Origin: Chitinophagaceae bacterium
GTDB taxonomy: Bacteria; Bacteroidota; Bacteroidia; Chitinophagales; Chitinophagaceae
DNA length: 37,572 nucleotides
Direction: 5' to 3'
Assembly (NCBI GenBank): GCA_947447005.1
Contig: CANFHO010000016.1
Span: 1-37,572 of the forward strand
Shown here: piece after piece, positions 2,619 to 30,599 of the stretch
How positions within the stretch are numbered: the first letter of the stretch is position 1
How the letters are laid out: the number at the start of each line of letters is the position of its first letter
Notes under the pieces: model-generated
The model's database searches: none
What the model was told of the DNA's origin: nothing
What the model saw: only the letters and a program-made list of their open reading frames with translations
Made by a program: the position numbers and the translations under genes

Positions 2619-3389
2619 TTACTTGTGCCCCGTGCCCTGTGACTTGTCGTTTACCCATGGATTTTTCCCGGTTTTGAAATACTTGGAAGCTTCCAATATA
2701 TATGTATCGAATTCAAGGTCAGAGCTGAAAGAAGTAAAATAATAATCAGGCCGGTAGGCTTTCATGAATTTCTCCAGTTCAACTCCCTGTAACTTGGTGA
2801 GTTGTTGCACCAATTTTTTGGTGAACCTGTGGTCGATGTATTTTTGTTGTTCCTCTTCAATCAGGCGATTTTGCAGCACTCTCATTGATTTATTCTTTCT
2901 GAATTTAAAAGATTCAATGATACTTCCCAGATCGAGTCCAGGTACACCACCCATTCCTCCTGTTTCAGTCAGTTGCAAACCACCACCGCCAAATTCGAAC
3001 ACTTTGCGGTAGTTTTCTCTGTTCATGATAGAATCTTCCTTGTAAGACTTACCAATAACAACTACTTCTTTGAGGGTACGGTACTTATCCTGAATTTTTA
3101 CTTGAAGTGCAATGTCAAATCCTGCGGGGTATTGGATGGTTTTTACAGGGAAGAAGTTGGTGTTCCGCCCCATATAGGAAAAAAACACTGAATCGTTTTT
3201 ATCAACATTCAACCCATATCTGCCTACTGAATCGGTATATGTGATGGTTCCTTTTTTGGTACTCACCTTAACGGTAGGCACTGTAACCATTCTGGTAGAG
3301 TCGTATACGGTACCGCTTAGCCATATTTGCGATTGGCTGGATTTAAATAGAAAAATGGCAATCAGTATGGAAATAAAATGCTTCAGAAT
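2619..3389 (-). CDS. secreted CarboxypepD_reg-like domain protein with apparent non-ATG start
   Basis: Exported protein with an N-terminal beta-sandwich of the carboxypeptidase regulatory-like type (SGTVYDS, then TDSVGRYG), followed by about 150 residues of unrecognised sequence containing a glycine-rich patch (FGGGG). The first in-frame ATG is at 3290 and would cut into the sandwich. The open frame continues upstream through an evident signal peptide (LKHFISILIAIFLFKSSQS) to an ATT at 3387-3389, with an in-frame stop just beyond the adjoining repeat array and no ATG, GTG or TTG. I therefore extend to the ATT, giving 256 residues, but the true start is uncertain. The last residues (DKSQGTGHK) are encoded by another heptamer array. 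Function unknown; it leads the beta-lactamase-fold and M19 genes. Confidence 0.7.
   Translation of the reverse strand: MLKHFISILIAIFLFKSSQSQIWLSGTVYDSTRMVTVPTVKVSTKKGTITYTDSVGRYGLNVDKNDSVFFSYMGRNTNFFPVKTIQYPAGFDIALQVKIQDKYRTLKEVVVIGKSYKEDSIMNRENYRKVFEFGGGGLQLTETGGMGGVPGLDLGSIIESFKFRKNKSMRVLQNRLIEEEQQKYIDHRFTKKLVQQLTKLQGVELEKFMKAYRPDYYFTSFSSDLEFDTYILEASKYFKTGKNPWVNDKSQGTGHK
2620..2647. repeat. heptamer array A, four units
   Basis: Four contiguous 7-base units of the form N-M-C-Y-Y-G-T, such as GCCCTGT and GACTTGT on the plus strand. The array encodes the last residues of the minus-strand CarboxypepD_reg-like protein and includes part of its stop codon. A 6-bp inverted repeat, GGGCAC (2613-2618) and GTGCCC (2625-2630), overlaps it. 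Confidence 0.8.
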
Positions 3390-3390
3390 G

Positions 3391-3432
3391 TAAGTTCTAT
3401 GTTCTAGGTTGTATGTTGTAAGTTCTGGGTTG
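3391..3432. repeat. heptamer array B, six units
   Basis: Six contiguous 7-base units of consensus T-A/G-D-GTT-S on the plus strand, for example TAAGTTC (twice) and TATGTTG. The array ends one base upstream of the ATT that I take as the start of the minus-strand CarboxypepD_reg-like gene, where a promoter or leader would be expected. The remaining 3433-3546 holds nothing I recognise. Confidence 0.8.
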
Positions 3433-3546
3433 TTGAATCATCAACTGAATTGTAAATATATTAAGTAACAAACTCAATGGGTGTTAACAAACCCTTTAAA
3501 CTTTATAAGATCGAAGGAATCAGATGGGGAACCTACAACCTATGCA

Positions 3547-4431
3547 TTAAAAAGTAGAACCCAATATCCATCCTTCAATCACAAGCGGATAATGTTCATG
3601 TTCAAGCACATGAATTTTAGCAGCAAGAGAATCAGGTGTATCATCTGCAGAAATAGGCACTTCGGCCTGAAAAAGGGTTTGACCATGATCGTATTGTTCA
3701 TCCACCAAGTGTATGGAAATGCCTGAAAAAGGTTCGCCTGCGGCGATGACCGCCTCATGAACATGGCTGCCATACATTCCTTTTCCACCATATTTTGGAA
3801 GCAATGCAGGGTGAATATTTAAAATATGTTCAGGGAAGGCGGCAATCAATGTTTGGGGAATTTTCCATAGGAATCCTGCCAAAACAATATGTGTAATTCC
3901 TTGATTTTTAATATCTTGTACATATTTATCGGTATCCAGGAATATATGGCGTTCAATCATCATCAATGGAATGTTTGCATTTGATGCGATATGGATCACA
4001 CCTGCACCCGGCTTGTTGCAAACAACCAGCGAAATATCTATAAATGGATGATTTTCAAAATGTTCTATAATTTTTTTGGCATTGCTTCCTGCGCCGGATG
4101 CAAAAATGGCCACGTTAAACTTTTCGTTTGATATTTTAAGGGATTTAAGTAAACCCATGCGATGCAGGATCTTTTTTTCATAGTTCCAAAAGAAGGGAAA
4201 CTGTCCGAATAAAAAAGCCACAATGAGTATAATTACTTGATAACCAAATATCAATACACCCATGCGAAGGAGAATTCTCCATAATAAAAGGGTATTTTCA
4301 TCAAAACCTATCCACGATGTAATGCTCCTGGAAATATATGCAGTAAGGCTACCGGTAACGGCAAAAGTGCAAAGAATCAGGCCCAGTTGGGAGGCGGAAA
4401 CCTTCCATTTTTTTTGGAGATTTTCTAACAT
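3547..4431 (-). CDS. purN: phosphoribosylglycinamide formyltransferase fused to an N-terminal membrane domain
   Basis: The C-terminal ~190 residues are PurN, which transfers a formyl group from 10-formyltetrahydrofolate to glycinamide ribonucleotide in purine synthesis. Visible are the phosphate-binding SGAGSNA, the NIHPALLP motif with N205 and H207, and D248 in EQYDHG. The N-terminal ~95 residues resemble a DUF6787-type membrane protein with two hydrophobic helices (about residues 16-33 and 55-75), beginning MLENLQKKWKVS. The frame is continuous across the junction with no stop. M92 could serve as an internal start giving free PurN. I start at 4431 (M11 of the longest frame) because the ten residues before it are not domain-like. 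Normal PurN is about 190-210 residues and cytosolic, so this form would be membrane-tethered. The catalytic assignment is firm; the fusion's purpose is unknown. Confidence 0.88.
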   Translation of the reverse strand: MLENLQKKWKVSASQLGLILCTFAVTGSLTAYISRSITSWIGFDENTLLLWRILLRMGVLIFGYQVIILIVAFLFGQFPFFWNYEKKILHRMGLLKSLKISNEKFNVAIFASGAGSNAKKIIEHFENHPFIDISLVVCNKPGAGVIHIASNANIPLMMIERHIFLDTDKYVQDIKNQGITHIVLAGFLWKIPQTLIAAFPEHILNIHPALLPKYGGKGMYGSHVHEAVIAAGEPFSGISIHLVDEQYDHGQTLFQAEVPISADDTPDSLAAKIHVLEHEHYPLVIEGWILGSTF

Positions 4432-4589
4432 TATGCAAATAGAAGAAAAAAAGAGCAGCATGCCACAAAACCCGTGTCAAATTATTTTATATAGCCCATG
4501 AGTTTACTTTTTTGTGACAATTCTTGATTTTTTTAAAAATGAATCGCTGAAATGCAGTGTGGGCCTGCATCAAAAAAAAGTTAAAGATG

Positions 4590-4622
4590 TTGATATAATG
4601 TTGAAATCCTGTCTTAAATTTG
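4590..4622 (+). promoter_or_regulatory. predicted Bacteroidota-type promoter of the respiratory operon
   Basis: A perfect -7 element TAAATTTG (TAnnTTTG consensus) lies at 4615-4622, with TTG at 4590-4592, a 22-base spacer. Transcription would begin around 4628, leaving a leader of about 45 bases before actA. The rest of 4432-4589 shows no gene. Confidence 0.55.
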
Positions 4623-4672
4623 CACGCGATTACAGGAGACCTTCTCCATTTCAATTATAATCCACTGAGGGT

Positions 4673-5923
4673 ATGAATCATAAAAGAAAAATCTTTCAGA
4701 CACTTTATTCGGTTTTCATTCTAACAGCGTTCCTGTCTATCTCTGAGTTGGTTTCTGCTCAAGATGGCAAGGCACTGTTCAACCAAAAGTGTGCTTCCTG
4801 TCATGCAATTGATAAGCAACTCGTAGGTCCTGCACTGAAAGGCGTTGAAGACCGTTGGGATGACAAGAAAATGATCTATGAATGGGTCAGGAACAGTGCA
4901 GCAGTAATTAAAAAGGGTTATCCAAGGGCTGTTGAGGTCTATGGACAATTCAATAAAATTCAGATGACTGCTTTTCCTGAGTTGAAGGATGCAGATATTG
5001 ATGCCATTCTTGGATACATTGCAACAGGTGGCGCAAAAGCTGCTGCTCCTGGTGCGGCACCCGTAGCTGAGCAATCTGCTGGCAAAGAGTCTGATTCTAA
5101 CATGTTATATGGCATACTCACTTTGATTCTTGCTGTAATTACGCTGATTCTTCTTCAAGTGAACAGCAATCTTCGCAAGATGTCTGATGAGTCGCAAGGC
5201 GTTGCCTCCGCAGAGCCGATTCCTTTCTACAGAAACAAAGCATATATAGCCATCTTCGCTATTCTGTTGTTCCTTGGAGCTGGTTATTTCCTCTTCCAAA
5301 GTGCACAGGGATTGGGAAGATCAAAAAATTATCAACCTGAGCAACCAATTTTCTATTCTCATAAAGTACATGCTGGCGTAAATCAAATCAGCTGTCTTTA
5401 TTGCCATGGTGGTGCACAAGAGAGCAAACATGCCAATATCCCTTCGGTGAATATTTGTATGAACTGCCACATGGGTATCAACGAATATGCAAAGGGACCA
5501 AAATTGTATCGTGAAGACGGTTCTGAGGTGGATGGTACAGCAGAGATTCAGAAGTTATATAAATATGCTGGATGGGATCCATCCACTAAAAAATACACTG
5601 GCGATGCCAAGGCAATCGAATGGACAAGGATTCACAACCTGCCAGACCATGTGTATTTCAACCACTCTCAGCACGTAACTGCCGGTAAGCAACAGTGTCA
5701 AACCTGCCATGGAGAAATCCAAAAAATGGATGAGGTTTATCAGTTTGCCGACCTCAGCATGGGCTGGTGCGTGAACTGCCACAGAACAACAAAAGTTCAG
5801 TTCACAGAAAATAAGTTTTACAGCATTTATGAGAAGTTCCATGAAGATTTGAAAAACAAGAAGCTTGACAGCGTAACTGTTGAAAAAATTGGCGGAACTG
5901 AATGTCAAAAATGCCACTACTAA
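4673..5923 (+). CDS. actA: alternative complex III subunit A, six-heme cytochrome c
   Basis: Heme subunit of alternative complex III, the quinol:electron-acceptor oxidoreductase used in place of bc1. Signal peptide to about residue 30. The first domain is a monoheme cytochrome c (CASCH, 40-44). Two membrane helices follow (about 144-162 and 190-208), then the five-heme ActA domain with CLYCH 241, CMNCH 262, CQTCH 342, CVNCH 366 and CQKCH 411. With both helices spanning, both heme domains face the periplasm. The five-heme part matches the family; the N-terminal monoheme domain is an extra module relative to pentaheme ActA. It is first in the operon, 54 bases before actB. Hemes should carry electrons from ActB to ActE or directly to the oxidase CuA site. 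Confidence 0.95.
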   Translation: MNHKRKIFQTLYSVFILTAFLSISELVSAQDGKALFNQKCASCHAIDKQLVGPALKGVEDRWDDKKMIYEWVRNSAAVIKKGYPRAVEVYGQFNKIQMTAFPELKDADIDAILGYIATGGAKAAAPGAAPVAEQSAGKESDSNMLYGILTLILAVITLILLQVNSNLRKMSDESQGVASAEPIPFYRNKAYIAIFAILLFLGAGYFLFQSAQGLGRSKNYQPEQPIFYSHKVHAGVNQISCLYCHGGAQESKHANIPSVNICMNCHMGINEYAKGPKLYREDGSEVDGTAEIQKLYKYAGWDPSTKKYTGDAKAIEWTRIHNLPDHVYFNHSQHVTAGKQQCQTCHGEIQKMDEVYQFADLSMGWCVNCHRTTKVQFTENKFYSIYEKFHEDLKNKKLDSVTVEKIGGTECQKCHY

Positions 5924-5977
5924 CATTATAATTAATACACTGACACATCGCATACCACTCACAACCTTACATCTGAT

Positions 5978-8900
5978 ATGAAGCAAAAAAAATATTGGCA
6001 GAGTTTCGGTGAATTGAAGAACAGTGACAATTACCAAGAAAACGTTCAAGACGAATTCGGTGAAGACCTTCCAATGGCCGAGCACGAAGGAATCATGGAT
6101 GCCAAAGCGCCAAGAAGGGACTTTCTCAAATACGTAGGATTCAGCACTGCTGCTGCTACCATCGCTGCAAGCTGCGAAATGCCTATAAAAAAGAGCATTC
6201 CATACCTGAACAAGCCTGAAGGAATCACTCCAGGTGTTCCAAACTATTATGCTACCACATATATTCAGGATGGCGATGCAATCCCGGTTGTAGCCAAGGT
6301 TCGTGATGGCAGACCTATTAAAATGGAAGGCAATGATCTTTCAAGCATTACCAAAGGTGGTACATCTGCTCGTGTACAGGCTTCTGTACTTGGGTTGTAT
6401 GATACAGCTCGTTTGCGTTTTCCAATGGCGAATGGTAAGGAAGTAAGCACCTTCGAAGCATTCGATAAAATGGTTGCTGATTCACTCGCAGGTTTGGGTG
6501 GTAAACCAGTTGTATTATTGACTGAAACAATTACTTCGGTTACTACCAAAAATGTGGTTGCTTCATTCCTTTCAAAATTTCCTGGCGCACGCCATGTACA
6601 ATATGATGCACTTTCAGCAAGCGGTATCCTGAATGCAAGTGCTGCATCTTTTGGTAAAAGGGCCATCCCTTCATATCAGTTTGACAAGGCTACAACCATT
6701 GTAAGTCTTGGTGCTGATTTCCTTGGTACATGGTTGAGTCCAATTGAATATGCACGTCAATACGCAGTTGGACGTAAGATCAACCAGAAGAATCCGGAAA
6801 TGAGCAAGCATATTTCTTTTGAAAGCATGCTTAGCCTCACGGGTGCAAATGCCGACGATCGTTTCGTACATCTTCCTTCTGAAGAATTGGCTGTTGCTTT
6901 GAACATTCTTGCAGCAGTTGGCGGAAGCGTTTCTGCTCCAAAACTGGCTGAAGAGCGCCTGAACAAGGGTATCAAGCTCGCAGCAGCATCTTTGAAAAAA
7001 TCTGGTTCCACTTCACTTGTTGTTAGTGGAAGCAATAATACCGATGTACAAGTTGTGGTAAATGCCATCAACCAGCAACTGGGTGCGTATGGTACTACAA
7101 TCGATTGGGGTACAACACTCAATACCCGTCAGGGTGATGATGCAGCTATGGTTCAACTCGTTCAGGATATGAACGATGGGAAAATCGGAGCAGTATTGAT
7201 TCATGGTGTAAATCCCGCATACGATTATTTCGATGCAAAGAAATTTGAATCAGGATTGAAAAAAGTTGTTTCTCTATCTTTCAACGACAGATTGGATGAA
7301 ACAACTTCAATCTGTACATATGCACTTGCCGACAATCACTTCCTGGAAAGCTGGGGTGACGCAGAAATGAAATCAGGTTTCCTGAGCTTCATTCAGCCAA
7401 CCATTGCTCCTTTGTTCAAAACAAGGGCATTTCAAACTTCTTTGTTGAAATGGAGTGGTGATGCAACCTCTTACGGAGATTATTTCAAACAATACTGGCT
7501 CGGTCACTTTGGCTCACAAACTGCATGGGATAAAGCATTGCAAGATGGTGTTGTTGAAGCACCTGCGTCAGCTTCTGCAGGTAGCTACAATGGTTCAGCT
7601 CTTGCCGCCGTTTCAACGGTTGCTCCAAAAGCCCTTGGAACTGAATTGGTAGTGTATTCAAAAGTTGCTCTTGGTTCTGGTAAAGATGCCAACAACCCGT
7701 GGTTGCAGGAAATGCCTGATCCAATCACCAAGGCCACTTGGGATAACTATGCAATCATTTCTTTTGCTATGGCCAAGGAATTGGGAATCGTAGTTGATGA
7801 TAATTATGAAGTTGAAGTAAGCAAGCCTGTTATTAAAATAACAGCAGCTGGTAAAGAATATTCACTTCCTGTTCTTGTGATTCCTGGTATGCACAAAAAT
7901 GTAATTGCTGTAGCTCTTGGTTACGGTCGTTCTGAAGGTGCAGGTGCTGCTGCAGCAGGTGTAGGACAAAATGCATTCCCACTTGTTAGCTTCAATGGTA
8001 AAACATTTGCATACAGTGTTTCCAACGTTACTTTCGCAAAATCAACTGAAACATACAAAATCGCTTACACACAAACTCACAATCAATATGAAGGTCGTGA
8101 TGAAGTGGTTCGTGAATATGCGCTTGAAGAATTTAAGAAAAATCCAACCATCCTTCTTGATGTAAGGAATGAATTGGTGGAAGACTTTGCAACAGAAACA
8201 GGAAGTTACCGTGATGATGCTACATTATATCCAAGCCATCCATATCCTGGAGCTAAATGGGGAATGAGCATCGACTTAAACTCATGTATCGGTTGCGGTG
8301 CTTGTACTGTTGCCTGTACTTCAGAAAACAACGTTGCAGTTGTTGGTAAATCAGAAGTACTCCGCGCACATGAAATGCATTGGCTTCGCATTGATCGTTA
8401 TTTTGCTACCTATCGCGATAATTCAGGTGAAGACAATTTGGATGATTTGAATGTAGTGTTTATGCCAATGCTTTGTCAGCATTGCGATAACGCTCCATGT
8501 GAGAATGTTTGTCCGGTAAACGCTACCAACCACAGCAGCGAAGGTTTGAACCAAATGACATACAACCGTTGCATTGGTACACGTTATTGTGCCAACAACT
8601 GTCCATATAAAGTAAGACGTTTCAACTGGGCAGATTATATGGGTGCTGATAGCTTCCCAGACAATCAGAAAGGTGAATTGGATGATGCGGTAATGATGAT
8701 GAATGATGATCTTACAAGGATGGTATTGAATCCAGATGTTACTGTAAGGTCTCGTGGTGTAATTGAAAAATGTTCTTTCTGTGTTCAGCGTTTGCAAGAA
8801 GGAAAGTTGAAAGCGAAGAAAGAAAACAGGCCGCTTGAAACAGGAGCTGATGGCAAGTGGGATATTAAAACCGCATGTCAACAATCTTGTCCAACAAACG

Positions 8901-9130: not shown

Positions 9131-9167
9131 TCAAAGAAAGTAGCGAATTCTCATAAACGACCAACAC

Positions 9168-10643: not shown

Positions 10644-10667
10644 TTCTAAAAAAGTAAAAAGAATAAA

Positions 10668-11252: not shown

Positions 11253-11301
11253 TTAAAGTAACAGGGAAAAGCTCCGAGGAGATCTATAAAACAAATAAGA
11301 A

Positions 11302-19666: not shown

Positions 19667-20209
19667 ATGTTGCAAGCAAGCATGAAGAAAAACGACAAAA
19701 GAGCAAATCTATTGATCATCCTTTTTTCAGTAATCGTATTCGTGGCAGTAGTTGTTTTATCAAAACTGAAGCTTGATGTTGAACTCCCATTCAATGTTCA
19801 TTTGTTTGCAAAAGCCAATGCAGTGATCAATTCACTCGTGTCAGTCCTTCTTGTTGTTGGTTTGGTGGCAGTGAAACAAAGCAAATTTATATTACATAAA
19901 ACAGTCATGATGGCTGCTATGGTGTTATCGTTGCTCTTCCTTGTCTCTTATATTTGTCACCACTTATTTTCTGATTCAACATCATATCTCGGTGAAGGGC
20001 CAGTTAAATATGTCTATTATTTCATATTGGTAACGCATATCCTTCTTGCTGCCATCATTCTTCCCTTTATTTTATATACTTCCTACAGGGCTTTGATTGC
20101 CGAATGGCCTGCGCATAAAAAACTTGCTAAAATCACATGGCCTATATGGTTTTATGTATCCGTAACAGGTGTGATAGTTTATTTGATGATTAGTCCTTAT
20201 TATCAATAA
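19667..20209 (+). CDS. DUF420 membrane protein
   Basis: Membrane protein with five hydrophobic segments and conserved-looking histidines (LLFLVSYICHHLF, FILVTHILLA, NVHLFAKANA), recognised as DUF420, a family often found beside cytochrome oxidase genes. A role in oxidase assembly or heme/copper handling is commonly guessed; the sequence does not prove it. A start six codons later (19682) is equally possible. Confidence 0.85.
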   Translation: MLQASMKKNDKRANLLIILFSVIVFVAVVVLSKLKLDVELPFNVHLFAKANAVINSLVSVLLVVGLVAVKQSKFILHKTVMMAAMVLSLLFLVSYICHHLFSDSTSYLGEGPVKYVYYFILVTHILLAAIILPFILYTSYRALIAEWPAHKKLAKITWPIWFYVSVTGVIVYLMISPYYQ

Positions 20210-20214
20210 AAGAG

Positions 20215-20242
20215 ACGAGTGACAAGAAACAAGAAACAAGTT
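20215..20242. repeat. heptamer array C, four units
   Basis: Four 7-base units of form ACRAGNN (ACGAGTG, ACAAGAA twice, ACAAGTT). Read on the minus strand they match the unit type of array D. The GTG start of the alkyltransferase-like gene (20219) lies inside the first unit. Confidence 0.8.
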
Positions 20243-20611
20243 ACTGGAAAAGTAAAAAAGGAATCTTCTGTTAAGGTTGATCAAAGAAATTTCTTTGAAG
20301 ATGTGTTCGATGTTGTGCGTCAGATACCCAAAGGGCGCGTTACCAATTATGGAAGTATTGCAAAATATCTTGGGTCGGGACTTTCTTCCAGAATGGTTGG
20401 TTGGGCTATGAATGCATCACATGGTGTAAAACCTAAGGTTCCTGCACAGCGTGTAGTAAATCGTAATGGCATACTTACAGGGAGAAATCATTTTGCTACC
20501 CCTACTCTGATGCAGGAGTTACTAGAAAAGGAAGGAATTGAAATTAAGAATGATAAAGTAGTTGATTTCAAAAACCTATACTGGGACCCAGAACAGGAAT
20601 TGGCATTGTAA
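20219..20611 (+). CDS. alkyltransferase-like protein, MGMT family without the active cysteine
   Basis: DNA-binding domain of the O6-alkylguanine-DNA alkyltransferase family. The helix-turn-helix region GSIAKYLG, the arginine finger R58 in SSRMVGWAM, and the NRNG loop are present. The alkyl-acceptor motif PCHRV is replaced by P75-A-Q-R-V79, so the protein cannot accept an alkyl group. Such ATL proteins flag alkylated bases for nucleotide excision repair. I use the GTG at 20219; there is no ATG before residue 59, and the first ~16 residues come partly from a repeat array. It begins 9 bases after DUF420. Confidence 0.85.
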   Translation: MTRNKKQVTGKVKKESSVKVDQRNFFEDVFDVVRQIPKGRVTNYGSIAKYLGSGLSSRMVGWAMNASHGVKPKVPAQRVVNRNGILTGRNHFATPTLMQELLEKEGIEIKNDKVVDFKNLYWDPEQELAL

Positions 20612-20649: not shown

Positions 20650-20684
20650 CACTTGTTACTCGTCACTCGTAACTTGTCTCTTGC
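20650..20684. repeat. heptamer array D, five units
   Basis: Five 7-base units, four of them of type NACYYGT, such as CACTCGT and AACTTGT, the fifth degenerate. They encode the C-terminal residues and stop codon of the minus-strand DUF5522 gene. With array C, 405 bases away in the opposite orientation, it brackets the alkyltransferase-like gene. Confidence 0.8.
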
Positions 20685-20853
20685 TTTTCAATTCAGATTT
20701 TTTTGGCTCTGGAACATTCTTAAAATCGTAAGGGCAATTCATGCAGCCATTTCCGCAACATGTTCCATTTTCGATATGATATTGAGCTGTCAGGACCATG
20801 AAACCCTGGTCATTATAATTGTAATGTATTCCTTCAATCAGCTTTTTTCTCAT
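20656..20853 (-). CDS. small DUF5522 family protein
   Basis: A 65-residue protein with a compact cysteine cluster CCGNGCMNCPYDF, preceded by YNDQGFMVLTAQYH, recognised as DUF5522. Four cysteines so close suggest a bound metal, but the function is unknown. The start overlaps the end of trmB by 20 bases, so the two are co-transcribed and perhaps coupled. The last ten residues (KSKRQVTSDE) are translated from the heptamer array and are unlikely to belong to the ancestral protein. Confidence 0.8.
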   Translation of the reverse strand: MRKKLIEGIHYNYNDQGFMVLTAQYHIENGTCCGNGCMNCPYDFKNVPEPKKSELKSKRQVTSDE

Positions 20854-21718: not shown

Positions 21719-21726
21719 AAACATCG

Positions 21727-22082: not shown

Positions 22083-22091
22083 GTAAACCAT

Positions 22092-22104: not shown

Positions 22105-22128
22105 TTTTAATCATTAAAAACAAATCAA

Positions 22129-22896: not shown

Positions 22897-25292
22897 TGTT
22901 CCGATATTGTCTTATGATATATATTTTTCTGATTCCATCTATAACAAAAGCACAAGACAGTTTACCTGTAAAAACTCTTCCAGGTGTACGTATTGTTGAT
23001 CGGAAAAGGAATTTCGTAGAAAGAAACGATACCATTATCTATGATGCAAAGGCATTCATGAGCAATGAAGTACATAAGGTGAAAGACCTACTTTCATTTA
23101 TGCCGGGATTCAGTGTTGATGAAAATGGAAGGGTGATGTTCAATGGTCGGGAAATAAAGCATATAATGATTAATGGAGAAGATCTGACTGGAAACAAATA
23201 TGAAGCAATAACAAAAAACCTGCAGGCGGGACTCATTAGTAGAGTGGAGTTGGTAAAGAGGTATCATGAGAACCGCCTGCTTTCATCTGTAGAATGGGGA
23301 GATGAGCAAGCAATTAATCTGGTAGTAGATGAACATAAAAAATATAAAGTCAATGCGCAACACACCTTTGGTACAACACCAGATTTCAAAAAAAAGGAGC
23401 TGGATGGGAATGTTATCTCCATTTATAAGAGAGCAACTACCCTGATGTTTTTTGATATGAACAATCATGGAAGAAATCCTACATTTTCATTATTTCCTGA
23501 TAATGCTCTGATAAAAAATTTTGCTCCTTTTAGGTTCCCCTATTCTTATATACCCACCTATCTTACCGATGATATTGCAGAAACCTATTTGAGAAATAAC
23601 AATGATAAAGGAGTGAATATTAGCCATACGCATAAAATATTTCCACATCTATCACTTCTAACAAAACTTATTATATCAGAACAAAAGTTAATCCATCGTC
23701 AGGATCTTATTTCATCATTTTTATTTCCAGGCATGGATGAATTGAAATATGAAAATAAGCAATTCAATAGAAAAGCATTTTATCAAACTGATTTACATCT
23801 TAATATGAAGTATGATAATTTAAAGCGTCATATTTCATCATATCAATTCTATCTGACTAATAACAGACAATCAAGTGCTAATCTTCAATATTCAACACTA
23901 CCCTTGATGGATACTGCTATGACGAATATGTCTGGATTATTCAGGATGTTAGCAATACAAGCAAATGAAACATTTCAGTTAAGTAGAAAATATGTGCTTG
24001 AATCAGAATCTAATTTAGTTATAGGCAAGCCTAAAAATCATTTGGATATTTCTTCACATGCTTTACCATTTTTACAAGGGGTACCTACAGGGTCTTCAAT
24101 ACTAATCGATGATGCAAAAGCAACAGAGCGGATGTTTACATCAGGATTGAAAATTTTGTTCAAATGGAAAAAAAGCTTTTTTCAATTGGGAATTAAATTG
24201 GAGAATCAACGTTTATACACATTGAATAATCTTTTTGCCAAACAAATGCAAGACAGTATTGAAATTGTTTCATCCAATGGAATTTTTCATTTAAATAGAA
24301 TATCTATATATGGAAAACGTGAACAAGAAATCAATAAACATCTGATGATATCATTGCATTCCTCATTGGGTATTTCTGGTTCCATTTGGAAAAATCAGAA
24401 AACACAACAGCTTACTGGAAATGTATTGATGTCATTGAATTATCAGAAGAATGCTTTCAGAACAACAAATCTATTTTTCAATCTTACAAGAGGGCTGCCC
24501 AATAAAAATCTATATTTTACTTCACCCATCCTGAATACCCAAATGCAGTTTATGAATGGCGCGCCAACGATTGTATATCCTGTGAAAGCAAGTTTACATC
24601 TTGCAAAAGCCTACAATGATTTATATAAAGGATTCTCAGTTTCATCTAATATATCAATAGAAAAAAAAATATATTCCCTGCTGCCTACACTCAATCAATT
24701 TCATTTTTATTCTATCCATGGATATGAATTGGGCAAAGAAGGTATGTTCATTTCCTCTTCATGTAAAATTCAAAAGAATTTATTTCCATATAAGATTAAA
24801 CCTTATGTAGATATCCGTGTGAACAGCAGCAATCAGAAAATATCATTCAATGGAAGTAAAAATAACATGAGCACTATTTTTTCTGAATTTCAGGTAGGAG
24901 TAGTTAGTTATTGGAATACAAAATTGAATGTGGAGTCAAGTGTATTATACAGATCAACTTTCTTGCAGATGAAACCCATGCAAGAAAATGGGAACAGTCA
25001 TGATTTTATTACAAGGGCAGACCTAAAGTTTAAATGTGAAATTGCAAAAAAGACCTATGCATCCATCTATGGAGTCTTATTAAAGAATAGACAATATATG
25101 TATTCAACAACATTCTTAGATGGGTATCTTGAACATACAATTTCTGAAAGGCTGATGTGTGTATTGAAAATGCACAATCTCCTGAATCAAACTATGTATA
25201 CAGAAAGGCCTTATGCTGCTTATTTCACACAAACAACGAGTGTGGCTATCGTACCACGTTATATTATGTTTTCAGTCCAAATAAATCTTTAA
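22896..25292 (+). CDS. TonB-dependent-receptor-like outer membrane protein
   Basis: Predicted outer-membrane barrel of about 800 residues. I start at 22896 (MFRYCLMIYIF), which gives a signal peptide ending at TKAQ; the open frame extends 17 codons further up inside the GLPGLI gene. A plug-like domain comes first (MPGFSVDENGRVMFNGREI, then IMINGEDLTGN and the SRVELVKRY segment), followed by alternating barrel strands ending in a terminal strand, IMFSVQINL. It lacks an obvious CarboxypepD_reg N-terminal domain and a clear TonB box. It is translationally coupled to the GLPGLI gene, so the pair probably works together on export or uptake of an unknown substrate. Its stop directly abuts the stop of the opposite-strand gene. 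Confidence 0.8.
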   Translation: MFRYCLMIYIFLIPSITKAQDSLPVKTLPGVRIVDRKRNFVERNDTIIYDAKAFMSNEVHKVKDLLSFMPGFSVDENGRVMFNGREIKHIMINGEDLTGNKYEAITKNLQAGLISRVELVKRYHENRLLSSVEWGDEQAINLVVDEHKKYKVNAQHTFGTTPDFKKKELDGNVISIYKRATTLMFFDMNNHGRNPTFSLFPDNALIKNFAPFRFPYSYIPTYLTDDIAETYLRNNNDKGVNISHTHKIFPHLSLLTKLIISEQKLIHRQDLISSFLFPGMDELKYENKQFNRKAFYQTDLHLNMKYDNLKRHISSYQFYLTNNRQSSANLQYSTLPLMDTAMTNMSGLFRMLAIQANETFQLSRKYVLESESNLVIGKPKNHLDISSHALPFLQGVPTGSSILIDDAKATERMFTSGLKILFKWKKSFFQLGIKLENQRLYTLNNLFAKQMQDSIEIVSSNGIFHLNRISIYGKREQEINKHLMISLHSSLGISGSIWKNQKTQQLTGNVLMSLNYQKNAFRTTNLFFNLTRGLPNKNLYFTSPILNTQMQFMNGAPTIVYPVKASLHLAKAYNDLYKGFSVSSNISIEKKIYSLLPTLNQFHFYSIHGYELGKEGMFISSSCKIQKNLFPYKIKPYVDIRVNSSNQKISFNGSKNNMSTIFSEFQVGVVSYWNTKLNVESSVLYRSTFLQMKPMQENGNSHDFITRADLKFKCEIAKKTYASIYGVLLKNRQYMYSTTFLDGYLEHTISERLMCVLKMHNLLNQTMYTERPYAAYFTQTTSVAIVPRYIMFSVQINL

Positions 25293-26975
25293 TCAATGAA
25301 TGGGAACGAGATATGATTCGCTTTCATTACCAGCCCTGTCAATTGCAGTAACAATGATATTTTTTAAGACATTGGACAGCCCATTGTTGTTTTTTACTTG
25401 CAAGGGTAAACTGGTAGTGTTTTCTGTTTTTGAGTAGATGGCATACTCCCATTGGTTGCCATATTGTGAATAAACAATCCATTGTGAAAGATCAGTCTCT
25501 TTAGACTTCCAATTTACCTGAAGATCGTTATCCTTTTTCTGAATTGAAACAACAGGAGCTGAAGGCATGATATTATCTAGCCAGGGGGATGCCGGTATCA
25601 AGGCTGCTTCTGTATAAGGGCCATCCATCAGCTTTTCAGCAAGTTCTGGATTCTTAACCAGTGAAGAAATATTCCAGTGAATAGCACCCATGCTTTTTGA
25701 AACAAGACTTCTGGTGAGTCCTATTTCATCCAAAATTTCTTGTGAGTTAGAAACAGATGGTTTATTGTTCACAACACTTATGCCTGGCCATAAATGACGT
25801 TGTAAAATGTTTTCACTCTGCCACCATGATAGTAAATCCGGAAATCTTTGTCCTGTTTTATTGATTGGCCAATACAATTGAGGTGCAAAATAATCTATCC
25901 ATCCTTTATTCAACCAAAGCTTTGCATCGGCATAAAGTTTGTCATATTGATCGAACCCGGTAACAGAAGAAGGGAATCCAGGTCGCCATATTCCAAACGG
26001 ACTCAAACCGAATTTTACATATTTCTTTTCAGCCTTGATTTCTTTATAGATCCTTTCAATGAGTGTATTTACAGCATCCCTTCTCCAATCTCCTCTTGAT
26101 AAGGAGCCTCCATTTTGTTGATAAGCACTGTATGATTTATCATCAGGGAAATCCTTTCCGCCATTGTACGATGGATATGGATAAAAGTAATCATCGAAAT
26201 GTATACCATCTACATCATATCTTTTTACAATATCATTTACAACCCTGCTGGTTTGATCTTGCGTAGCTTTTAAAGAAGGATCCATCCAATAATAACCTTC
26301 TTGTAACCTGTATACCAATTCAGGGTTTGTTTTGACAATTGATTTATCACTGATGGTATTGCCATTGGTATGAAAAGCGCGATATGGATTCAGCCAGGCG
26401 TGCAACTCCAATCCTCTTTTGTGGGCTTCATCAATCCAAAAAGCCAATGGGTCGTAAAAAGGTTCTGGAGCATCCCCTTGTTTTCCGGAAAGAAAATATG
26501 ACCAAGGTTCTATATCACTTTTATACAATGCATCCGCCTGAGGTCTTACTTGAAAAACAACGGCATTGAACTGATTGTCTTTAAGAAAATCCAATAATTC
26601 AATGGCTTCCTGTTGTTGTTCGTAGGCCGACAAACCAGGTTTGCTTGGCCAGTCGATATTTGCAACCGTTGCCACCCAAGCAGCACGAAATTCGCGCATT
26701 ACTTTGATTGGAGGGTTTATCGATGATTTATTTTCGATATTCGATGTTCGATTTTCGATGTTTGGTTTTGGAGATGCATTCTGATTTTTTTGGGCTACAA
26801 TGGCTGTGCTTTTGGTTTCAACAGCGGAAACTTGTGCCTCGTGACTTTTGACCTGTGACTTTTGGTTCGTGACTTGTGCCTCATGCCCATTGCCATGCAA
26901 TCTATCAGAAACCTTTTTTATGCTGGCGCAAGAGGCGAAGAAGACCAGAGAGGTAAGGAGTAGGGTACGAAACAT
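25293..26975 (-). CDS. GHL10-type glycoside hydrolase lipoprotein
   Basis: Lipoprotein with lipobox Cys16 (FFASC), so anchored in a membrane. Residues 28-88 are a low-complexity linker, largely encoded by two heptamer arrays. The family domain runs from about residue 92 (REFRAAWVATVANIDWP) to 430, with the FDDYFYPYP, WRRDAVN and YFAPQLYWP segments typical of GHL10 (DUF187) enzymes. The C-terminal ~85 residues look like a fibronectin-III or Ig-like module. The family is thought to cleave glycans, with reported links to peptidoglycan; the substrate here is not shown. Alone on its strand, convergent with the receptor gene and divergent from the next. Confidence 0.88.
   Translation of the reverse strand: MFRTLLLTSLVFFASCASIKKVSDRLHGNGHEAQVTNQKSQVKSHEAQVSAVETKSTAIVAQKNQNASPKPNIENRTSNIENKSSINPPIKVMREFRAAWVATVANIDWPSKPGLSAYEQQQEAIELLDFLKDNQFNAVVFQVRPQADALYKSDIEPWSYFLSGKQGDAPEPFYDPLAFWIDEAHKRGLELHAWLNPYRAFHTNGNTISDKSIVKTNPELVYRLQEGYYWMDPSLKATQDQTSRVVNDIVKRYDVDGIHFDDYFYPYPSYNGGKDFPDDKSYSAYQQNGGSLSRGDWRRDAVNTLIERIYKEIKAEKKYVKFGLSPFGIWRPGFPSSVTGFDQYDKLYADAKLWLNKGWIDYFAPQLYWPINKTGQRFPDLLSWWQSENILQRHLWPGISVVNNKPSVSNSQEILDEIGLTRSLVSKSMGAIHWNISSLVKNPELAEKLMDGPYTEAALIPASPWLDNIMPSAPVVSIQKKDNDLQVNWKSKETDLSQWIVYSQYGNQWEYAIYSKTENTTSLPLQVKNNNGLSNVLKNIIVTAIDRAGNESESYLVPIH
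26719..26760. repeat. heptamer array E2, about six units inside a coding linker
   Basis: Four clean 7-base units TTCGATN (26733-26760) plus two more degenerate ones before them. On the minus strand it encodes the NIEN-type repeated residues of the GHL10 protein's linker. Confidence 0.75.
26829..26884. repeat. heptamer array E1, eight units inside a coding linker
   Basis: Eight contiguous units of the NMCYYGT type, for example GACTTGT, GCCTCGT and GACCTGT, with a few degenerate. The unit type is that of arrays A, C and D. Translated on the minus strand it gives the repeated EAQV / KSQV residues of the GHL10 linker. Confidence 0.8.
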
Positions 26976-27026
26976 AATTGTCTTTTTGCAAATTTCCCTT
27001 CAAAAATTGACAATTCATGCCAATTA

Positions 27027-27048
27027 GGAAAAAAATAACTATTTTTCC
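27027..27048. promoter_or_regulatory. AT-rich palindrome between divergent genes
   Basis: A perfect 7-bp inverted repeat, GGAAAAA and TTTTTCC around an eight-base spacer, lies in the 91-base gap between the divergent GHL10 gene and the small protein at 27067. A shared operator or a leader hairpin is possible; it has no terminator role here. Confidence 0.35.
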
Positions 27049-27066
27049 GGTCCGAAATCTACAAGT

Positions 27067-27255
27067 ATGAAAAAAGTAATACTAGCTCTTGCACTTGTTT
27101 GTGTTGCCTTTATCGGAAATGCACAGGATAAAAAGTCAGGAAACGGAAAAGAAAAAACCACTACTTGCTCAAAGCCTGAATGCAAAGACGCTAAGGGTGG
27201 TACCTGTAAGCATATGAAATCAGGTAAACAATGCGGAAAGCCTTCTAAAGGATAA
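27067..27255 (+). CDS. small secreted Cys/Lys-rich protein, unknown
   Basis: A 62-residue protein with a signal peptide ending at GNAQ (residue 19). The mature part is about 43 residues, very rich in Lys and Gly with four Cys (TTCSKPEC, GGTCKHMKSGKQC), a spacing that might bind metal or form disulfides. Family not recognised. Its TAA overlaps the ATG of the following gene by one base, so the two are translated together. Confidence 0.7.
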   Translation: MKKVILALALVCVAFIGNAQDKKSGNGKEKTTTCSKPECKDAKGGTCKHMKSGKQCGKPSKG

Positions 27256-27809
27256 TGAAAAGAAAGCTCATTTCCATATCATTCATTTTGCTTTTGGCAG
27301 TCAACTGGTTTGGCTATCAAATTATTGCTGGCTATCTCGAAAAGAAGGCCATGACGGATATGCAAACCAAGCTCGACAATTGGCATTATAACAACAATGA
27401 ACTCATCAGTATCAAAATACCTTTTGAACTACCTTATGGTTCCGGTTCAGAGGAATACACTTCTGCTGATGGAAGCATCGATATCAATGGCATAACATAT
27501 CAATATGTAAAGAAAAGGGTCTACAAAGGGAATTTAGAGATTCTTTGTATTCCGAACTTTACAAAGACATCCATCAAAAAAAGCAAGGAAGATTTTTCCA
27601 AGCAAATAAATGAGATTGCCACAACGAATTCTTCAAAGAAATCATCAGGATCCCAAACCGTGAAAGTTTCGATCCCAGACTTTACTGTAGAGGGTATACA
27701 GTTGATCCATCTCCTATCGGAAACTGCATTTCTTACGCATGCTTCAAAGCATGTCAATCATGAATCCTCCTCATTTCTTCGAGGATTCGATCAGCCACCA
27801 GAAGCTTAG
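27255..27809 (+). CDS. exported protein of unknown function
   Basis: A 184-residue protein with an N-terminal hydrophobic segment (signal peptide or anchor) and a soluble, periplasm-facing remainder. The C-terminus is His/Ser-rich and ends RGFDQPPEA; the Pro-rich close recalls small Bacteroidota exported proteins seen near metal-handling genes, but I cannot name a family. It overlaps the preceding small Cys/Lys protein by one base, which suggests a joint role. Confidence 0.65.
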   Translation: MKRKLISISFILLLAVNWFGYQIIAGYLEKKAMTDMQTKLDNWHYNNNELISIKIPFELPYGSGSEEYTSADGSIDINGITYQYVKKRVYKGNLEILCIPNFTKTSIKKSKEDFSKQINEIATTNSSKKSSGSQTVKVSIPDFTVEGIQLIHLLSETAFLTHASKHVNHESSSFLRGFDQPPEA

Positions 27810-27836
27810 TCTTTCATACATTTTTTGAATTTCATA

Positions 27837-27853
27837 CAGCAACAATGTTGCTG
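27837..27853. promoter_or_regulatory. small perfect hairpin after the unknown exported gene
   Basis: CAGCAAC, AAT, GTTGCTG: a perfect 7-bp stem with a three-base loop, 28 bases after the stop at 27809. No T-run follows, so a terminator role is weak. Confidence 0.35.
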
Positions 27854-27861
27854 CATTAGAT

Positions 27862-27883
27862 CATATGTATGTACATGCATATG
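27862..27883. promoter_or_regulatory. 22-bp near-perfect palindrome, possible operator
   Basis: CATATG at both ends and a centre symmetric about GTAC, with one mismatched pair of positions in 22 bases. It lies 35 bases before the ATG of the outer-membrane protein gene at 27919, a position suited to a regulator site for that gene and the haloperoxidase-like gene after it. Confidence 0.4.
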
Positions 27884-27918
27884 TATTACAGTTTTATACT
27901 TCTACACAACTTTGCAAA

Positions 27919-28887
27919 ATGAGAAAAAACATACCTGCCAAAAAGGCTATCATCATAGCCTGTTTGATAAGCATTTTCGGATCGGCTAAATCACAAACAG
28001 ATCAAGACGCTATCATGATGACAAAAAATAATTTTTGTACAGGATTGATGAACGTTGGAAATTCATGGAATAGTTATTGGGAAGGCACATTTAAAAGAAC
28101 CAATGATAATATAGGTACCATTTCCACAAAAGGTTGGAGTGTAATGGGAAACTATGGTGTGAAAGACAACTTGAATCTTCTTTTCGGATTGCCATACCTT
28201 AAAACAAATGCATCAAAAGGAGTCTTACATAGTCAACAAGGCATCCAAGATCTTTCGCTATGGCTGAAATGGATGCCATTGGAAAAAGATTTAGGCAAAG
28301 GAATATTCGCTATATACACATTAGGAGGAGTATCCATTCCTGCAACCAATTATATTTCAGATTATTTACCTCTATCCATTGGGATGAAAAGTAAAACTTT
28401 GTCGGGTAGATTGCTCCTGGATTATCAGCAAGGCGATTTTTTTGTAACCGCTTCTGAAACATATACACTCAGATCAAATATCAGTATTGAAAGAAATTCA
28501 TATTTCACAACAAATTTCATTTTAAGCGACAAGGTTCAAATGCCCAATGCAAATGTTGCAGGGTTGAGGGCAGGATACAGAACTTCGAAATGGATTATAG
28601 AAGGTTTGTTGTATGATATGAAAACACTGGGTGGTTTCGACATCACAAAAAATAACATGCCCTTTCCAAGCAATAAAATGAATTCAACATTTGCAGGCAT
28701 CAACCTCAAATATGAAATTGAAAAAATATCAGGATTGTCATTGACCGGTGGAGTGAGTAAGGTATTGAAAGGTAGAAATGTAGGGCAATCTGTAAGCTAT
28801 AATGCAGGTGTGTTCTATATCCTGGACTTTTCACCGAAGAAGAAAAAAACAATAAAAAAAGAAGAGACCACCACACAAAAAAATTAA
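27919..28887 (+). CDS. outer-membrane transporter-like protein
   Basis: A 322-residue exported protein. The start at 27919 (MRKNIPAKK) gives a signal peptide ending at AKSQ; an 18-codon upstream extension from 27865 overlaps the palindrome and is unlikely. The mature part is made of alternating strands typical of an outer-membrane barrel, with FGLPYLKTNASKG and YTLGGVSIPATNY recalling the phenol-meta-pathway/transporter-type barrel family. The C-terminus is a Lys/Thr-rich tail. One base separates it from the haloperoxidase-like gene, so the two are co-expressed. Confidence 0.7.
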   Translation: MRKNIPAKKAIIIACLISIFGSAKSQTDQDAIMMTKNNFCTGLMNVGNSWNSYWEGTFKRTNDNIGTISTKGWSVMGNYGVKDNLNLLFGLPYLKTNASKGVLHSQQGIQDLSLWLKWMPLEKDLGKGIFAIYTLGGVSIPATNYISDYLPLSIGMKSKTLSGRLLLDYQQGDFFVTASETYTLRSNISIERNSYFTTNFILSDKVQMPNANVAGLRAGYRTSKWIIEGLLYDMKTLGGFDITKNNMPFPSNKMNSTFAGINLKYEIEKISGLSLTGGVSKVLKGRNVGQSVSYNAGVFYILDFSPKKKKTIKKEETTTQKN

Positions 28888-28888
28888 G

Positions 28889-30433
28889 ATGAAAAAAATA
28901 TTACATACCATATTATTCATTTCACTTGCCATTTCTTTTTCGCAATGCAAAAAAGAAATTAATGGAAGAACTGATGAATTATCACCGTTGAATCCTGCAA
29001 GCACAGATCTACAAGCAGGCACATGGAAAACAGTTTTATTGACACGACCCGATACTTTTTCAGTGGCCATTCCTGCCGCAACGAATTCTGCAAACTATCT
29101 CGCAGAACTCAATGAAATAAAAGGATATCAAAGTAATTTGACAGCAGAGCAAAATGACCAAATTAAATATTGGGCGGCAGGCGGCGTTTTACGTTGGAAT
29201 GAATTGATGAGAGAATTGGTTGCAAAATACAATTTGCCTCCATATCAAAATGCTGATGGTACATATCCCATTCCAAGTTCTGCAAATCCTTTTGCATATC
29301 CATTGTTCCCATTTGCAAATCCACCCTATGCTGCAAGAGCTTATGCATATATAGCAGCGGCTCAATACGATGCCTTGGTGGCTTGCTGGCATTATAAAAA
29401 ACTATACAACAGACCTGCCCCTTTCATGGTTGATGCAACCATTAAAACACAGGTATCACAATCTGCATTACCATCGTATCCTTCTGAAGCAGCTGTGTTG
29501 GCAGGTGTTACATCAGAAATGATGAAATTGTTTTTTCCGACTGAGATTGCAAATATTCAAATGAAAGCAGAAGCCCATGAAAGAAGTGCGTTAATGTCGG
29601 GCGCTGCTACCAGAAGTGATATTGTTGCAGGCGAAGCTTTGGGCCGACAAATTGCGAATGTGTTCATTGCCAAAGCCAAAGTGGACAATGCAGGCAAGGC
29701 TGTTGGTACCTCTACCGATTGGTCTGCACTGGAAAACAATACAAGAGCAAAAGGTGAGATTCCCTGGATCAGCTTGGAAAGTCCTAAAAGACCACCCATG
29801 TTACCCTTGTATGGGAAGGTCACTCCTTTCTTGTTTGATACCGCAACGGTTACTGCATTGAGGCCAGGACCTCCACCATCTACTTCAAGTGATCAAATGA
29901 AAAAAGAAACAGAAGAGGTGTATAATTACGTTAAAAATCCAACCAAAGAAAACAACAGGATTGTGTTGTTTTGGGCAGATGGTGTTGGAACATGCACCCC
30001 TCCTGGCCACTGGAATGCCATTGCTGCTGAAGATTTTATCAAGAAAAATTACAGCGAAGTTCGTTGGGCAAGAAATATGGCTTTGTTGAATATGGCATTG
30101 ATGGATGCTGCCATCGTATGTTGGAATACCAAATATTATTATTTCAATCCACGTCCTGCACAATTGGACCCAAGAATAAAAACATTGACAGGCACACCAA
30201 ATTTTCCAGCCTATATTTCTGGTCATTCAACATTCAGCGGTGCAGCAGCAGCCGTTTTAGGATATATGATTCCTGAACGTGCCAGTGCATATTCCGCCAT
30301 GGCTGAGGAAGCATCTAAATCAAGATTGGTTGGTGGAATTCACTACAGGGCTGATTGTGAAGTTGGCTTAAAAGTTGGTGCCAGCGTAGGTGCGTATGCA
30401 GTGAACAGGGGTAAGGGGGATGGGTGTCAATAG
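28889..30433 (+). CDS. vanadium-dependent haloperoxidase/PAP2-like lipoprotein
   Basis: A 514-residue lipoprotein (SQC lipobox near residue 20) of the vanadium haloperoxidase/PAP2 superfamily. The vanadate/phosphate site is complete: K415-x6-R422-P423 (KYYYFNPRP), S444-G-H446, and R479-x5-H485-x3-D489 (SRLVGGIHYRAD). Family members either oxidise halides with peroxide or remove phosphate; sequence alone does not decide. It follows the outer-membrane protein by one base. Its stop codon TAG overlaps the first unit of an 8-base repeat array. Confidence 0.9.
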   Translation: MKKILHTILFISLAISFSQCKKEINGRTDELSPLNPASTDLQAGTWKTVLLTRPDTFSVAIPAATNSANYLAELNEIKGYQSNLTAEQNDQIKYWAAGGVLRWNELMRELVAKYNLPPYQNADGTYPIPSSANPFAYPLFPFANPPYAARAYAYIAAAQYDALVACWHYKKLYNRPAPFMVDATIKTQVSQSALPSYPSEAAVLAGVTSEMMKLFFPTEIANIQMKAEAHERSALMSGAATRSDIVAGEALGRQIANVFIAKAKVDNAGKAVGTSTDWSALENNTRAKGEIPWISLESPKRPPMLPLYGKVTPFLFDTATVTALRPGPPPSTSSDQMKKETEEVYNYVKNPTKENNRIVLFWADGVGTCTPPGHWNAIAAEDFIKKNYSEVRWARNMALLNMALMDAAIVCWNTKYYYFNPRPAQLDPRIKTLTGTPNFPAYISGHSTFSGAAAAVLGYMIPERASAYSAMAEEASKSRLVGGIHYRADCEVGLKVGASVGAYAVNRGKGDGCQ

Positions 30434-30599
30434 GCAAAGAGGCAAGGAGGCAAGGAGGCAAAGAGGCAAAGAGGCAAAGAGGCAAAGAGGCAAAGAGGCA
30501 AAGAGGCAAAGAGGATTAAAATTGGATTTGCAAATTCGAATAAATGTTGGATTTGCACCAAAATTCTCTTTGCCTCTTTGCCTCCTTGCCTCTTTCCCT
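30432..30599. repeat. octamer array F with inverted counterpart
   Basis: Ten contiguous 8-base units AGGCAAAG/AGGCAAGG at 30432-30511, then a 54-base spacer, then four units in the reverse orientation (CTTTGCCT type) at 30568-30599. The two sides can pair in a long stem. The spacer contains TTGGATTTGCA twice (30522 and 30547). The array starts inside the stop codon of the haloperoxidase-like gene and may end its transcript. 30600-30634 holds no further feature. Confidence 0.9.

What the first reader, a model, noticed from the sequence alone, without database searches (positions are those of the whole stretch)
2620..30599. Seven short tandem arrays, six with a 7-base period, sited on gene edges
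Arrays A (2620-2647), B (3391-3432), C (20215-20242), D (20650-20684), E2 (26719-26760) and E1 (26829-26884) all have 7-base units, and F (30432-30599) has 8-base units. A, C, D and E1 share one unit type (NMCYYGT on one strand); B and E2 have other units but the same period. All sit at a start, a stop or a linker. They contribute a stop codon and tail (A, D), a start codon (C) and a linker (E1, E2), and one abuts an apparent start (B). The form recalls the heptameric STRR repeats known in cyanobacteria, but I know of no description of this set in Bacteroidota. The unit sequence drifts while the period is held, which suggests expansion by slippage or a copying step.
Basis: partly seen in the sequence, partly recalled or inferred. 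Interest (0 to 1): 0.78.

Follow-up and report, generated by a model that had tools for sequence, protein, structure and literature searches.

The report
Stop-codon repeat arrays forming long hairpins
The short repeats in this Bacteroidota genome belong to a genome-wide set built from 7- and 8-base units that sits mostly just after gene stop codons, often as facing inverted pairs able to form long hairpins; similar repeats are known from Xanthomonas, but here there are many repeat words, related species carry other words at the same places, and the repeats flank single genes that have been turned around.

Summary
In 837,572 sampled bases of the window's genome, tandem arrays occur almost only at periods 7 and 8 and their multiples (none at 7 or 8 in two shuffles of the first 437,572). 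Of 74 arrays, 45 lie within 20 nt of a stop codon (3.6 expected), and 43 of those 45 are purine-rich in sense. Of 26 neighbouring pairs, 21 face purine arm then pyrimidine arm and none the reverse, so they can fold as long hairpins. Words are lineage-specific: the F octamer has 107 matches here and none in 40 congeners; at the D stop and in the GHL10 linker relatives carry other heptads. C and D flank an ogt gene that is inverted relative to 23 of 26 congeners; recR, also array-flanked, is inverted too. Closest known: Xanthomonas GGGAATC heptamers (PMC4692102), with the same stop placement and inverted pairs; G-quadruplexes do not explain the set here. Most likely: slippage-grown arms of mRNA 3'-end hairpins; function is inferred, not shown. 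New variant of a known kind.

The parts
2620..2647 (-). Array A: encodes the C-terminal tail KSQGTGHK and abuts the stop codon (2619-2621) of ORF 2619-3290(-); purine-rich on the sense strand
   Evidence: sequence and translation; weak alone, lag-7 score 10, expected 0.65 per shuffled window
3389..3433 (-). Array B: distal arm (GTTSTRN-like heptads on +), 113 nt after the stop of 3547-4461(-)
   Evidence: lag-7 score 18, 0 expected
3520..3545 (-). Possible short proximal partner of B next to the stop of 3547-4461(-)
   Evidence: 13-nt complementary match, shuffle p 0.01
20207..20246 (+). Array C: post-stop array of the DUF420 gene, purine-rich on +; the GTG start of the ogt ORF falls inside it
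20650..20684 (-). Array D: contains the tail and stop (TTA at 20656-20658) of the small CxxC ORF; inverted partner of C
   Evidence: C/D inverted match score 13, shuffled maximum 11
20219..20611 (+). ogt-like gene (6-O-methylguanine DNA methyltransferase, DNA-binding domain), inverted in place relative to most relatives
   Evidence: Pfam; gene order
20656..20799 (-). small ORF with C-x-x-C-P-Y-D motif; in non-inverted relatives ogt follows it on the same strand
   Evidence: start codon uncertain
26719..26769 (-). Array E2 (TTCGATR-like heptads) in the N-terminal linker of the GHL10 gene 25293-26975(-)
26829..26884 (-). Array E1 (same family as A, C and D by eye) in the same linker; relatives G004, G011 and G020 carry other heptads there
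30432..30514 (+). Array F proximal (purine) arm, AGGCAARG octamers, starting inside the stop codon of the PAP2 gene 28889-30433
30515..30565 (.). F loop, not shared with the other octamer hairpins read
30566..30599 (+). F distal (pyrimidine) arm, CTCTTTGC units, complementary to the proximal arm

Best explanation
These are tandem arrays, often paired as array-armed inverted repeats, placed at gene 3' ends. [quoted passage not shown] Inferred: each arm grows and shrinks on its own by 7-8-nt replication slippage (arm lengths differ, for example 10 and 4 units); the hairpin is kept because it serves the 3' end of the mRNA as a bidirectional terminator or a block to 3' exonucleases; words spread between sites of one genome by recombination and are replaced between lineages. 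A side effect, partly shown: two single genes flanked by such arrays on both sides (ogt, recR) are inverted in place, which fits the arrays serving as inverted homology.
For: Periods 7 and 8 and their multiples: 38 and 20 arrays at score 14 or more, at most 2 at any period that is not a multiple of 7 or 8. 45 of 74 arrays within 20 nt of a stop against 3.6 expected; 43 of these 45 purine-rich in sense. Intergenic sites: 18 of 41 convergent, against 37 of 292 background gaps of 60 b or more. Neighbouring arrays: 21 purine-to-pyrimidine, 0 reverse, of 26; mean complementarity 24.4 in own pairs against 9.7 across sites. Mean fold z of the 200 nt after the stop: -4.66 for 47 array stops, -0.80 for 52 other stops. 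Orthologous stop J2: scored arrays in G004, G020, G011 and G003, none in G012. ACAGCC/GGCTGT near 13 of 48 sites against 6% of random stop windows. ogt flanks: inverted match scores 13, 16 and 27 in three of four inverted genomes, at most 11 in 23 non-inverted ones. recR flanks: score 40 here, at most 9 in 26 others.
Against: No expression data. Canonical terminators are about as common without arrays: 8 of 18 convergent gaps with arrays, 48 of 83 without; tandem gaps 7 of 18 and 67 of 147. The own distal arm is the best or tied partner for only 6 of 21 proximal arms, because words are shared between sites. The order of unit variants is not mirrored between arms (17 hairpins, combined p 0.94). 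32 of 74 arrays have no facing partner by the test used, and 15 of 74 have a start codon as nearest gene boundary. Placement in other genomes is weaker: 13 of 52 arrays within 20 nt of a stop. G029 has inverted ogt without arms, and the other six genomes with inverted recR have no array at the threshold and no inverted flank match.
Confidence: 0.5

Rival explanations
1. Functionless by-product: 7-8-nt slippage happens anywhere and arrays survive only where they do no harm, just after stop codons; matching arms arise by strand switching at hairpins.
For: Period 7 is reported as the commonest class of longer simple repeats in bacteria, with a DNA-polymerase slippage idea (Mrazek 2007 as reported in passages; that paper itself not seen); arm lengths differ at many sites; adjacent units slightly more alike than in shuffled order; convergent gaps with arrays are long, median 129.5 against 20.
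Against: Purine-sense polarity 43 to 1 and arm order 21 to 0 are not expected from tolerance alone; the same words recur at dozens of sites; arms are not ordered copies.
Confidence: 0.27
2. REP-like mobile elements spread by a Y1/RAYT transposase.
For: Dispersed palindromes at gene ends; many octamer elements share similar three-unit chains; one Y1_Tnp gene in the genome.
Against: Loops differ between the octamer hairpins read; array-bearing G019 and G004 have no Y1_Tnp match while array-poor G031 has four and G029 two; the nearest scored array to the own Y1 gene in L223 is about 2 kb away.
Confidence: 0.1
3. G-quadruplex repeats as proposed for Xanthomonas and Nostoc.
For: Same placement and inverted pairs; relatives G004 and G019 have GGGACRA-like heptads.
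Against: 0 of 74 arrays in this genome have four G3 tracts on either strand.
Confidence: 0.03
4. A template-copying enzyme (reverse transcriptase or telomerase-like) adds units from a short template.
For: Period lock, identity nearly flat with distance along arrays, nested layers of two word families in matching order on both arms in a few hairpins (L253, L271, L170).
Against: No enzyme identified or searched for; several different words in one genome; weak adjacent similarity and uniform chains fit slippage.
Confidence: 0.04

Closest known systems
GGGAATC heptamer repeats of Xanthomonas (Rehm et al. 2015, PMC4692102; abstract, passages and sections 15-16 read)
   Same: Heptamers, 186 and 183 per genome, G-rich strand mostly within 50 bp after the stop on the coding strand, some overlapping the stop; 70 and 75 facing pairs; length and sequence variation at shared loci
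   Different: One G4-forming word type there; here many words, two periods (7 and 8), no four-G3-tract array in the sampled genome, other words in relatives, flanking inverted genes
TAACTGA heptamers of Beggiatoaceae, Cyanobacteria and five Bacteroidetes (MacGregor 2015, PMC4679880; abstract, passages and section 12 read)
   Same: Heptamer direct repeats, mostly intergenic, present in Bacteroidetes, with other heptamers in some of the same gaps
   Different: In the main species just upstream of start codons and a single word; here mostly downstream of stops, with facing pairs
Cyanobacterial STRR heptamers (recalled; Calothrix heptanucleotides are mentioned in a passage of PMC4692102)
   Same: Period 7, intergenic, degenerate units (recalled)
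   Different: Words and stop-codon polarity were not compared here
REP/BIME palindromes with RAYT transposases (recalled; PMC2817692 and PMC3733652 seen in search listings only)
   Same: Dispersed palindromes at gene ends
   Different: No fixed palindrome seen, loops differ, Y1 transposase not needed

Membership tests
Xanthomonas-type post-stop heptamer repeats (Rehm 2015) | heptameric tandem units concentrated just after stop codons with the G/purine-rich strand in sense | tested here: met
   45 of 74 within 20 nt of a stop, 43 of 45 purine-rich in sense; octamers also present
Xanthomonas-type post-stop heptamer repeats (Rehm 2015) | facing inverted pairs | tested here: met
   21 of 26 neighbouring pairs face purine then pyrimidine
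Xanthomonas-type post-stop heptamer repeats (Rehm 2015) | word GGGNATC able to form G-quadruplexes | tested here: not met
   0 of 74 arrays have four G3 tracts
TAACTGA repeats (MacGregor 2015) | word TAACTGA directly upstream of starts | tested here: not met
   7 of 74 arrays within 20 nt of a start, 4.6 expected at random; words listed differ, with a single TAACTGA unit inside L171:5549-5581
Cyanobacterial STRR | heptamer tandem arrays dispersed between genes | tested here: met
   38 period-7 arrays in 837,572 b; similarity of words to cyanobacterial ones was not tested
REP/RAYT elements | conserved palindrome with fixed ends | tested here: not met
   loops differ between octamer hairpins (13 listed, 29)
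REP/RAYT elements | Y1 (RAYT) transposase in array-bearing genomes | tested here: not met
   array-bearing G019 and G004 have no Y1_Tnp match
Intrinsic transcription terminators | stable hairpin after the stop codon | tested here: met
   mean fold z -4.66 after 47 array stops against -0.80 after 52 others
Intrinsic transcription terminators | short GC stem followed by a T tract | tested here: inconclusive
   8 of 18 convergent gaps with arrays, 48 of 83 without
Intrinsic transcription terminators | transcripts end there | not testable with these tools
   no expression data available here

The most novel reading that the evidence does not exclude
A general bacterial class of stop-codon hairpins built from 7-8-nt words, in which position, polarity and period are kept while the word is spread through a genome and replaced between species, and whose facing arms repeatedly turn single genes around in place.
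Probability: 0.2. Interest if true: 0.8.

Novelty: new variant of a known kind. Interest (0 to 1): 0.56.

Why it matters
Similar post-stop heptamers in Xanthomonas were read as G-quadruplexes. The same placement and pairing with words that lack four G3 tracts points to the hairpin, the purine polarity and the 7-8-nt period as the shared features. Relatives with other words, or no array, at the same stops make the origin and turnover of such arrays testable, and the flipped ogt and recR genes link them to gene-scale inversion, which reverses a gene's direction relative to its neighbours.

Tried and rejected
G-quadruplex: 0 of 74 arrays. RAYT spread: no match with presence of Y1_Tnp. SbcD absence as the permissive cause: no match in G000 and G004, but also none in array-poor G024, only sub-cut-off matches in array-poor G033 and G035, and a match over the cut-off in array-bearing G019; no association. 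Known RNA family: none in the window at gathering threshold. Arms as ordered copies of each other: not supported. Units as independent draws: lag identity looked flat, but a permutation test showed a small excess of neighbour similarity, so that reading was dropped. The octamer's variable base is not clustered along 56 mixed chains (z 0.2). Conserved loop, as in a transposon: not seen. A third gene between arrays (L176:7414-8577) could not be tested: neither neighbour was found beside it in relatives. Orthologous stop J1: I first read different period-7 arrays in four congeners; a recheck supports period 7 strongly in G004, weakly in G011 and G003 (p 0.0035 and 0.0065) and not in G020 (p 0.14, purine-rich only); G012 is bare.

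Limits: arrays were sampled from the first 20 kb of 40 contigs plus the window; 12 of the 74 arrays start in the first 1 kb of a contig, so the density is probably overestimated. Gene calls come from my own hexamer-based caller. The background gaps were limited to 60 b or more. The reversed-pattern control was not empty in this genome (64 + 9 matches against 48 + 59): the second octamer family GAAACGGA is the mirror image of AGGCAAAG; it was 0 in the 40 congeners. The threshold misses D itself, so weak arrays in non-inverted relatives could be missed there; one search gives a threshold-free match instead. The tree includes ogt's own columns, has weak deep branches, and the AU test was run after I had seen a first tree. 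recR was picked for a test because arrays flank it and also because it points against both neighbours, which favours finding an inversion.
Full report
CHECK. The window is the whole contig C16 of a 2,901,208-base assembly in 169 contigs; the nearest named records found with its GHL10 protein are Chitinophagaceae and other Bacteroidota. The seven arrays are at the stated places. Against 40 shuffles of the window, B, E2 and F are never matched, C, D and E1 are expected 0.03 times, A 0.65 times. Tandem Repeats Finder lists all but A. A is accepted only with its family.

GENOME-WIDE. In 21 stretches (437,572 b) arrays at score 14 or more were found at periods 7 (23) and 8 (12) and their multiples; two shuffles gave 0 at 7 and 8. 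In 41 stretches (837,572 b) the counts were 38 and 20, with at most 2 at any period that is not a multiple of 7 or 8. At score 12, 74 arrays fall in 48 sites. Several words are present: AAAAGAG, TAGGCAR, CAAGGCA and GTTAGGR-like heptads, AGGCAARG, GAAACGGR and GTGGAARR-like octamers; words run into one another inside single arrays, as in L014:624-734 and L018:14483-14592. The two commonest octamers are mirror images of each other, which is why the reversed-pattern control gave 64 + 9 matches in this genome.

PLACE AND POLARITY. Array sites: convergent 18, tandem 19, divergent 4, inside called genes 5, contig edges 2; background gaps of 60 b or more: 37, 165 and 90. 45 of 74 arrays lie within 20 nt of a stop (3.6 expected by random placement) and 7 within 20 nt of a start (4.6 expected); of the 45, 43 are purine-rich in sense, 1 pyrimidine-rich, 1 mixed. 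42 of 74 arrays have a facing complementary partner. Among 26 neighbouring pairs within 200 nt, 21 are purine-then-pyrimidine, 3 purine-purine, 2 pyrimidine-pyrimidine, 0 reversed. Own arms complement each other with mean score 24.4 (19 of 21 at 15 or more); arms from different sites 9.7 (21% at 15 or more, because words are shared; the own distal arm is best or tied for 6 of 21). Folding of 200 nt after the stop: mean z -4.66 for 47 array stops (29 below -3), -0.80 for 52 others (7 below -3). Nested layers occur in a few hairpins: an octamer outside and another family inside, in matching order on both arms, for example L253:15886-16045.

THE SEVEN ARRAYS. C starts right after the stop of the DUF420 gene and supplies a GTG start for ogt. 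D holds the tail and stop of a small CxxC ORF. A holds the tail of 2619-3290(-) next to its stop. B lies 113 nt after the stop of 3547-4461(-) with a weak partner beside that stop. F is a full hairpin starting inside a stop codon. E1 and E2 are the exception, in the linker of a GHL10 gene; relatives G004, G011 and G020, at 59-64% protein identity, carry other heptads in the same linker.

RELATIVES. The F octamer: 107 pattern matches here (one mismatch allowed), 0 in 40 congeners. Six congeners sampled for 40-100 kb (G029, G033, G035, G022, G024, G031) have no period-7 or period-8 array at score 14; three of them have one array each at period 21 or 24. G019 (5 period-7 in 63 kb) and G004 (2 in 48 kb) have GGGACRA-like heptads. 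In the 80 loci of other genomes (1,439,097 b), period 7 again leads: 22, against 4 at period 8 and at most 3 at other basic periods. Placement there is less sharp: of 52 arrays at score 12, 13 lie within 20 nt of a stop (8 purine, 2 pyrimidine, 3 mixed) and 7 within 20 nt of a start. Orthologous stops in the G004 group: at J1, G012 is bare, G004 has a strong heptad array, G011 and G003 weak ones of other sequence, G020 a purine-rich stretch without period 7. At J2, G004, G020, G011 and G003 all have scored arrays, partly of the same words, and G012 has none. At the D stop, the window, G004 and G011 carry three different word sets. The 6-mer ACAGCC/GGCTGT lies near 13 of 48 own sites against 6% of random stop windows; AACAGCC/GGCTGTT also sits in array hairpins of G019, G004, G020 and G011 built of other words, beside other copies inside genes.

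INVERTED GENES. In 23 congeners ogt lies on the strand of CxxC and trmB, with DUF420 facing it in the 22 where DUF420 was found. In the window, G004, G011 and G029 ogt is turned round; the other genes found (SCO, DUF420, CxxC, trmB, p22129, GHL10) keep their direction in all 35 loci listed. The two flanks of ogt are inverted copies of array sequence in the window (score 13), G004 (16) and G011 (27), not in G029 (5); 23 non-inverted congeners reach at most 11. On a tree of 29 genomes three changes are needed (states of G033 and G031 unknown), and one clade of the four inverted genomes is rejected (p-AU 0.0015). Test on other genes: a listing at score 10 gave 18 genes with arrays on both sides in the sampled and targeted stretches (ogt is not in it because D is below the threshold). 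Two were queried, both pointing against their neighbours (background 68 of 596 genes). recR (L253:15267-15881; Pfam) is inverted in this genome and in 6 others, not in 20, of 27 loci with both neighbours out of 30 fetched; here its two flanks are inverted copies over 76 nt including loop sequence (score 40, shuffled maximum 11), while the other 26 reach at most 9. The other gene had no conserved neighbours. Inversion without arrays also occurs, so arrays are at most one route.

MECHANISM. Arms differ in length and variant order is not mirrored (17 hairpins, p 0.94), so arms seem to grow separately. Neighbouring units are slightly more alike than shuffled (46 arrays, z 3.8; 85 arrays with targeted ones, z 6.6), as slippage predicts. 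Purine-then-pyrimidine order on both strands suits an RNA hairpin with a U-rich 3' side, hence terminator or 3' stabiliser; but canonical terminators are found at 8 of 18 convergent gaps with arrays and 48 of 83 without, which neither supports nor excludes it. No expression data were available.

LITERATURE. Rehm et al. (PMC4692102; passages, abstract, sections 15 and 16) describe nearly the same anatomy for GGGAATC in Xanthomonas. MacGregor (PMC4679880; abstract, passages, section 12) describes heptamers in Bacteroidetes. PMC4060949 (passages) surveys repeats and palindromes by phylum without this set in what I saw. Searches with Chitinophagaceae or Bacteroidetes and repeat terms listed no paper on this set; the library lacks most subscription journals. 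Verdict: new variant of a known kind, with many lineage-specific words and inverted array-flanked genes as the new points.

Noticed in passing
L253:15267-15881 (G000:C53): recR is turned round relative to its neighbours in 7 of 27 loci of the genus including this one; in this genome its flanks are inverted copies of one hairpin.
   Followed up: yes
G000 genome, e.g. window:30432-30514 and L013:5756-5790: The two commonest octamer words, AGGCAAAG and GAAACGGA, are exact mirror images (reversed, not complemented) of each other; found because the reversed-pattern control gave 64 + 9 matches.
   Followed up: partly
L014:3639-3784, L173:191-384; L238, L239, L244, L245: The 7-base core AACAGCC/GGCTGTT recurs at the inner ends of hairpins with different words in different species.
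   Followed up: partly
L176:17854-18403: Four purine heptad arrays spaced 167-174 nt apart after a stop codon, inside a larger tandem repeat with palindromes.
   Followed up: no
G000 whole genome: No SbcD (TIGR00619) match although the assembly is rated 100% complete; 13 of 41 genomes of the genus have one over the cut-off.
   Followed up: partly
window 27067-27255: Short lysine- and cysteine-rich ORF with a signal-like start just upstream of 27255, not examined.
   Followed up: no
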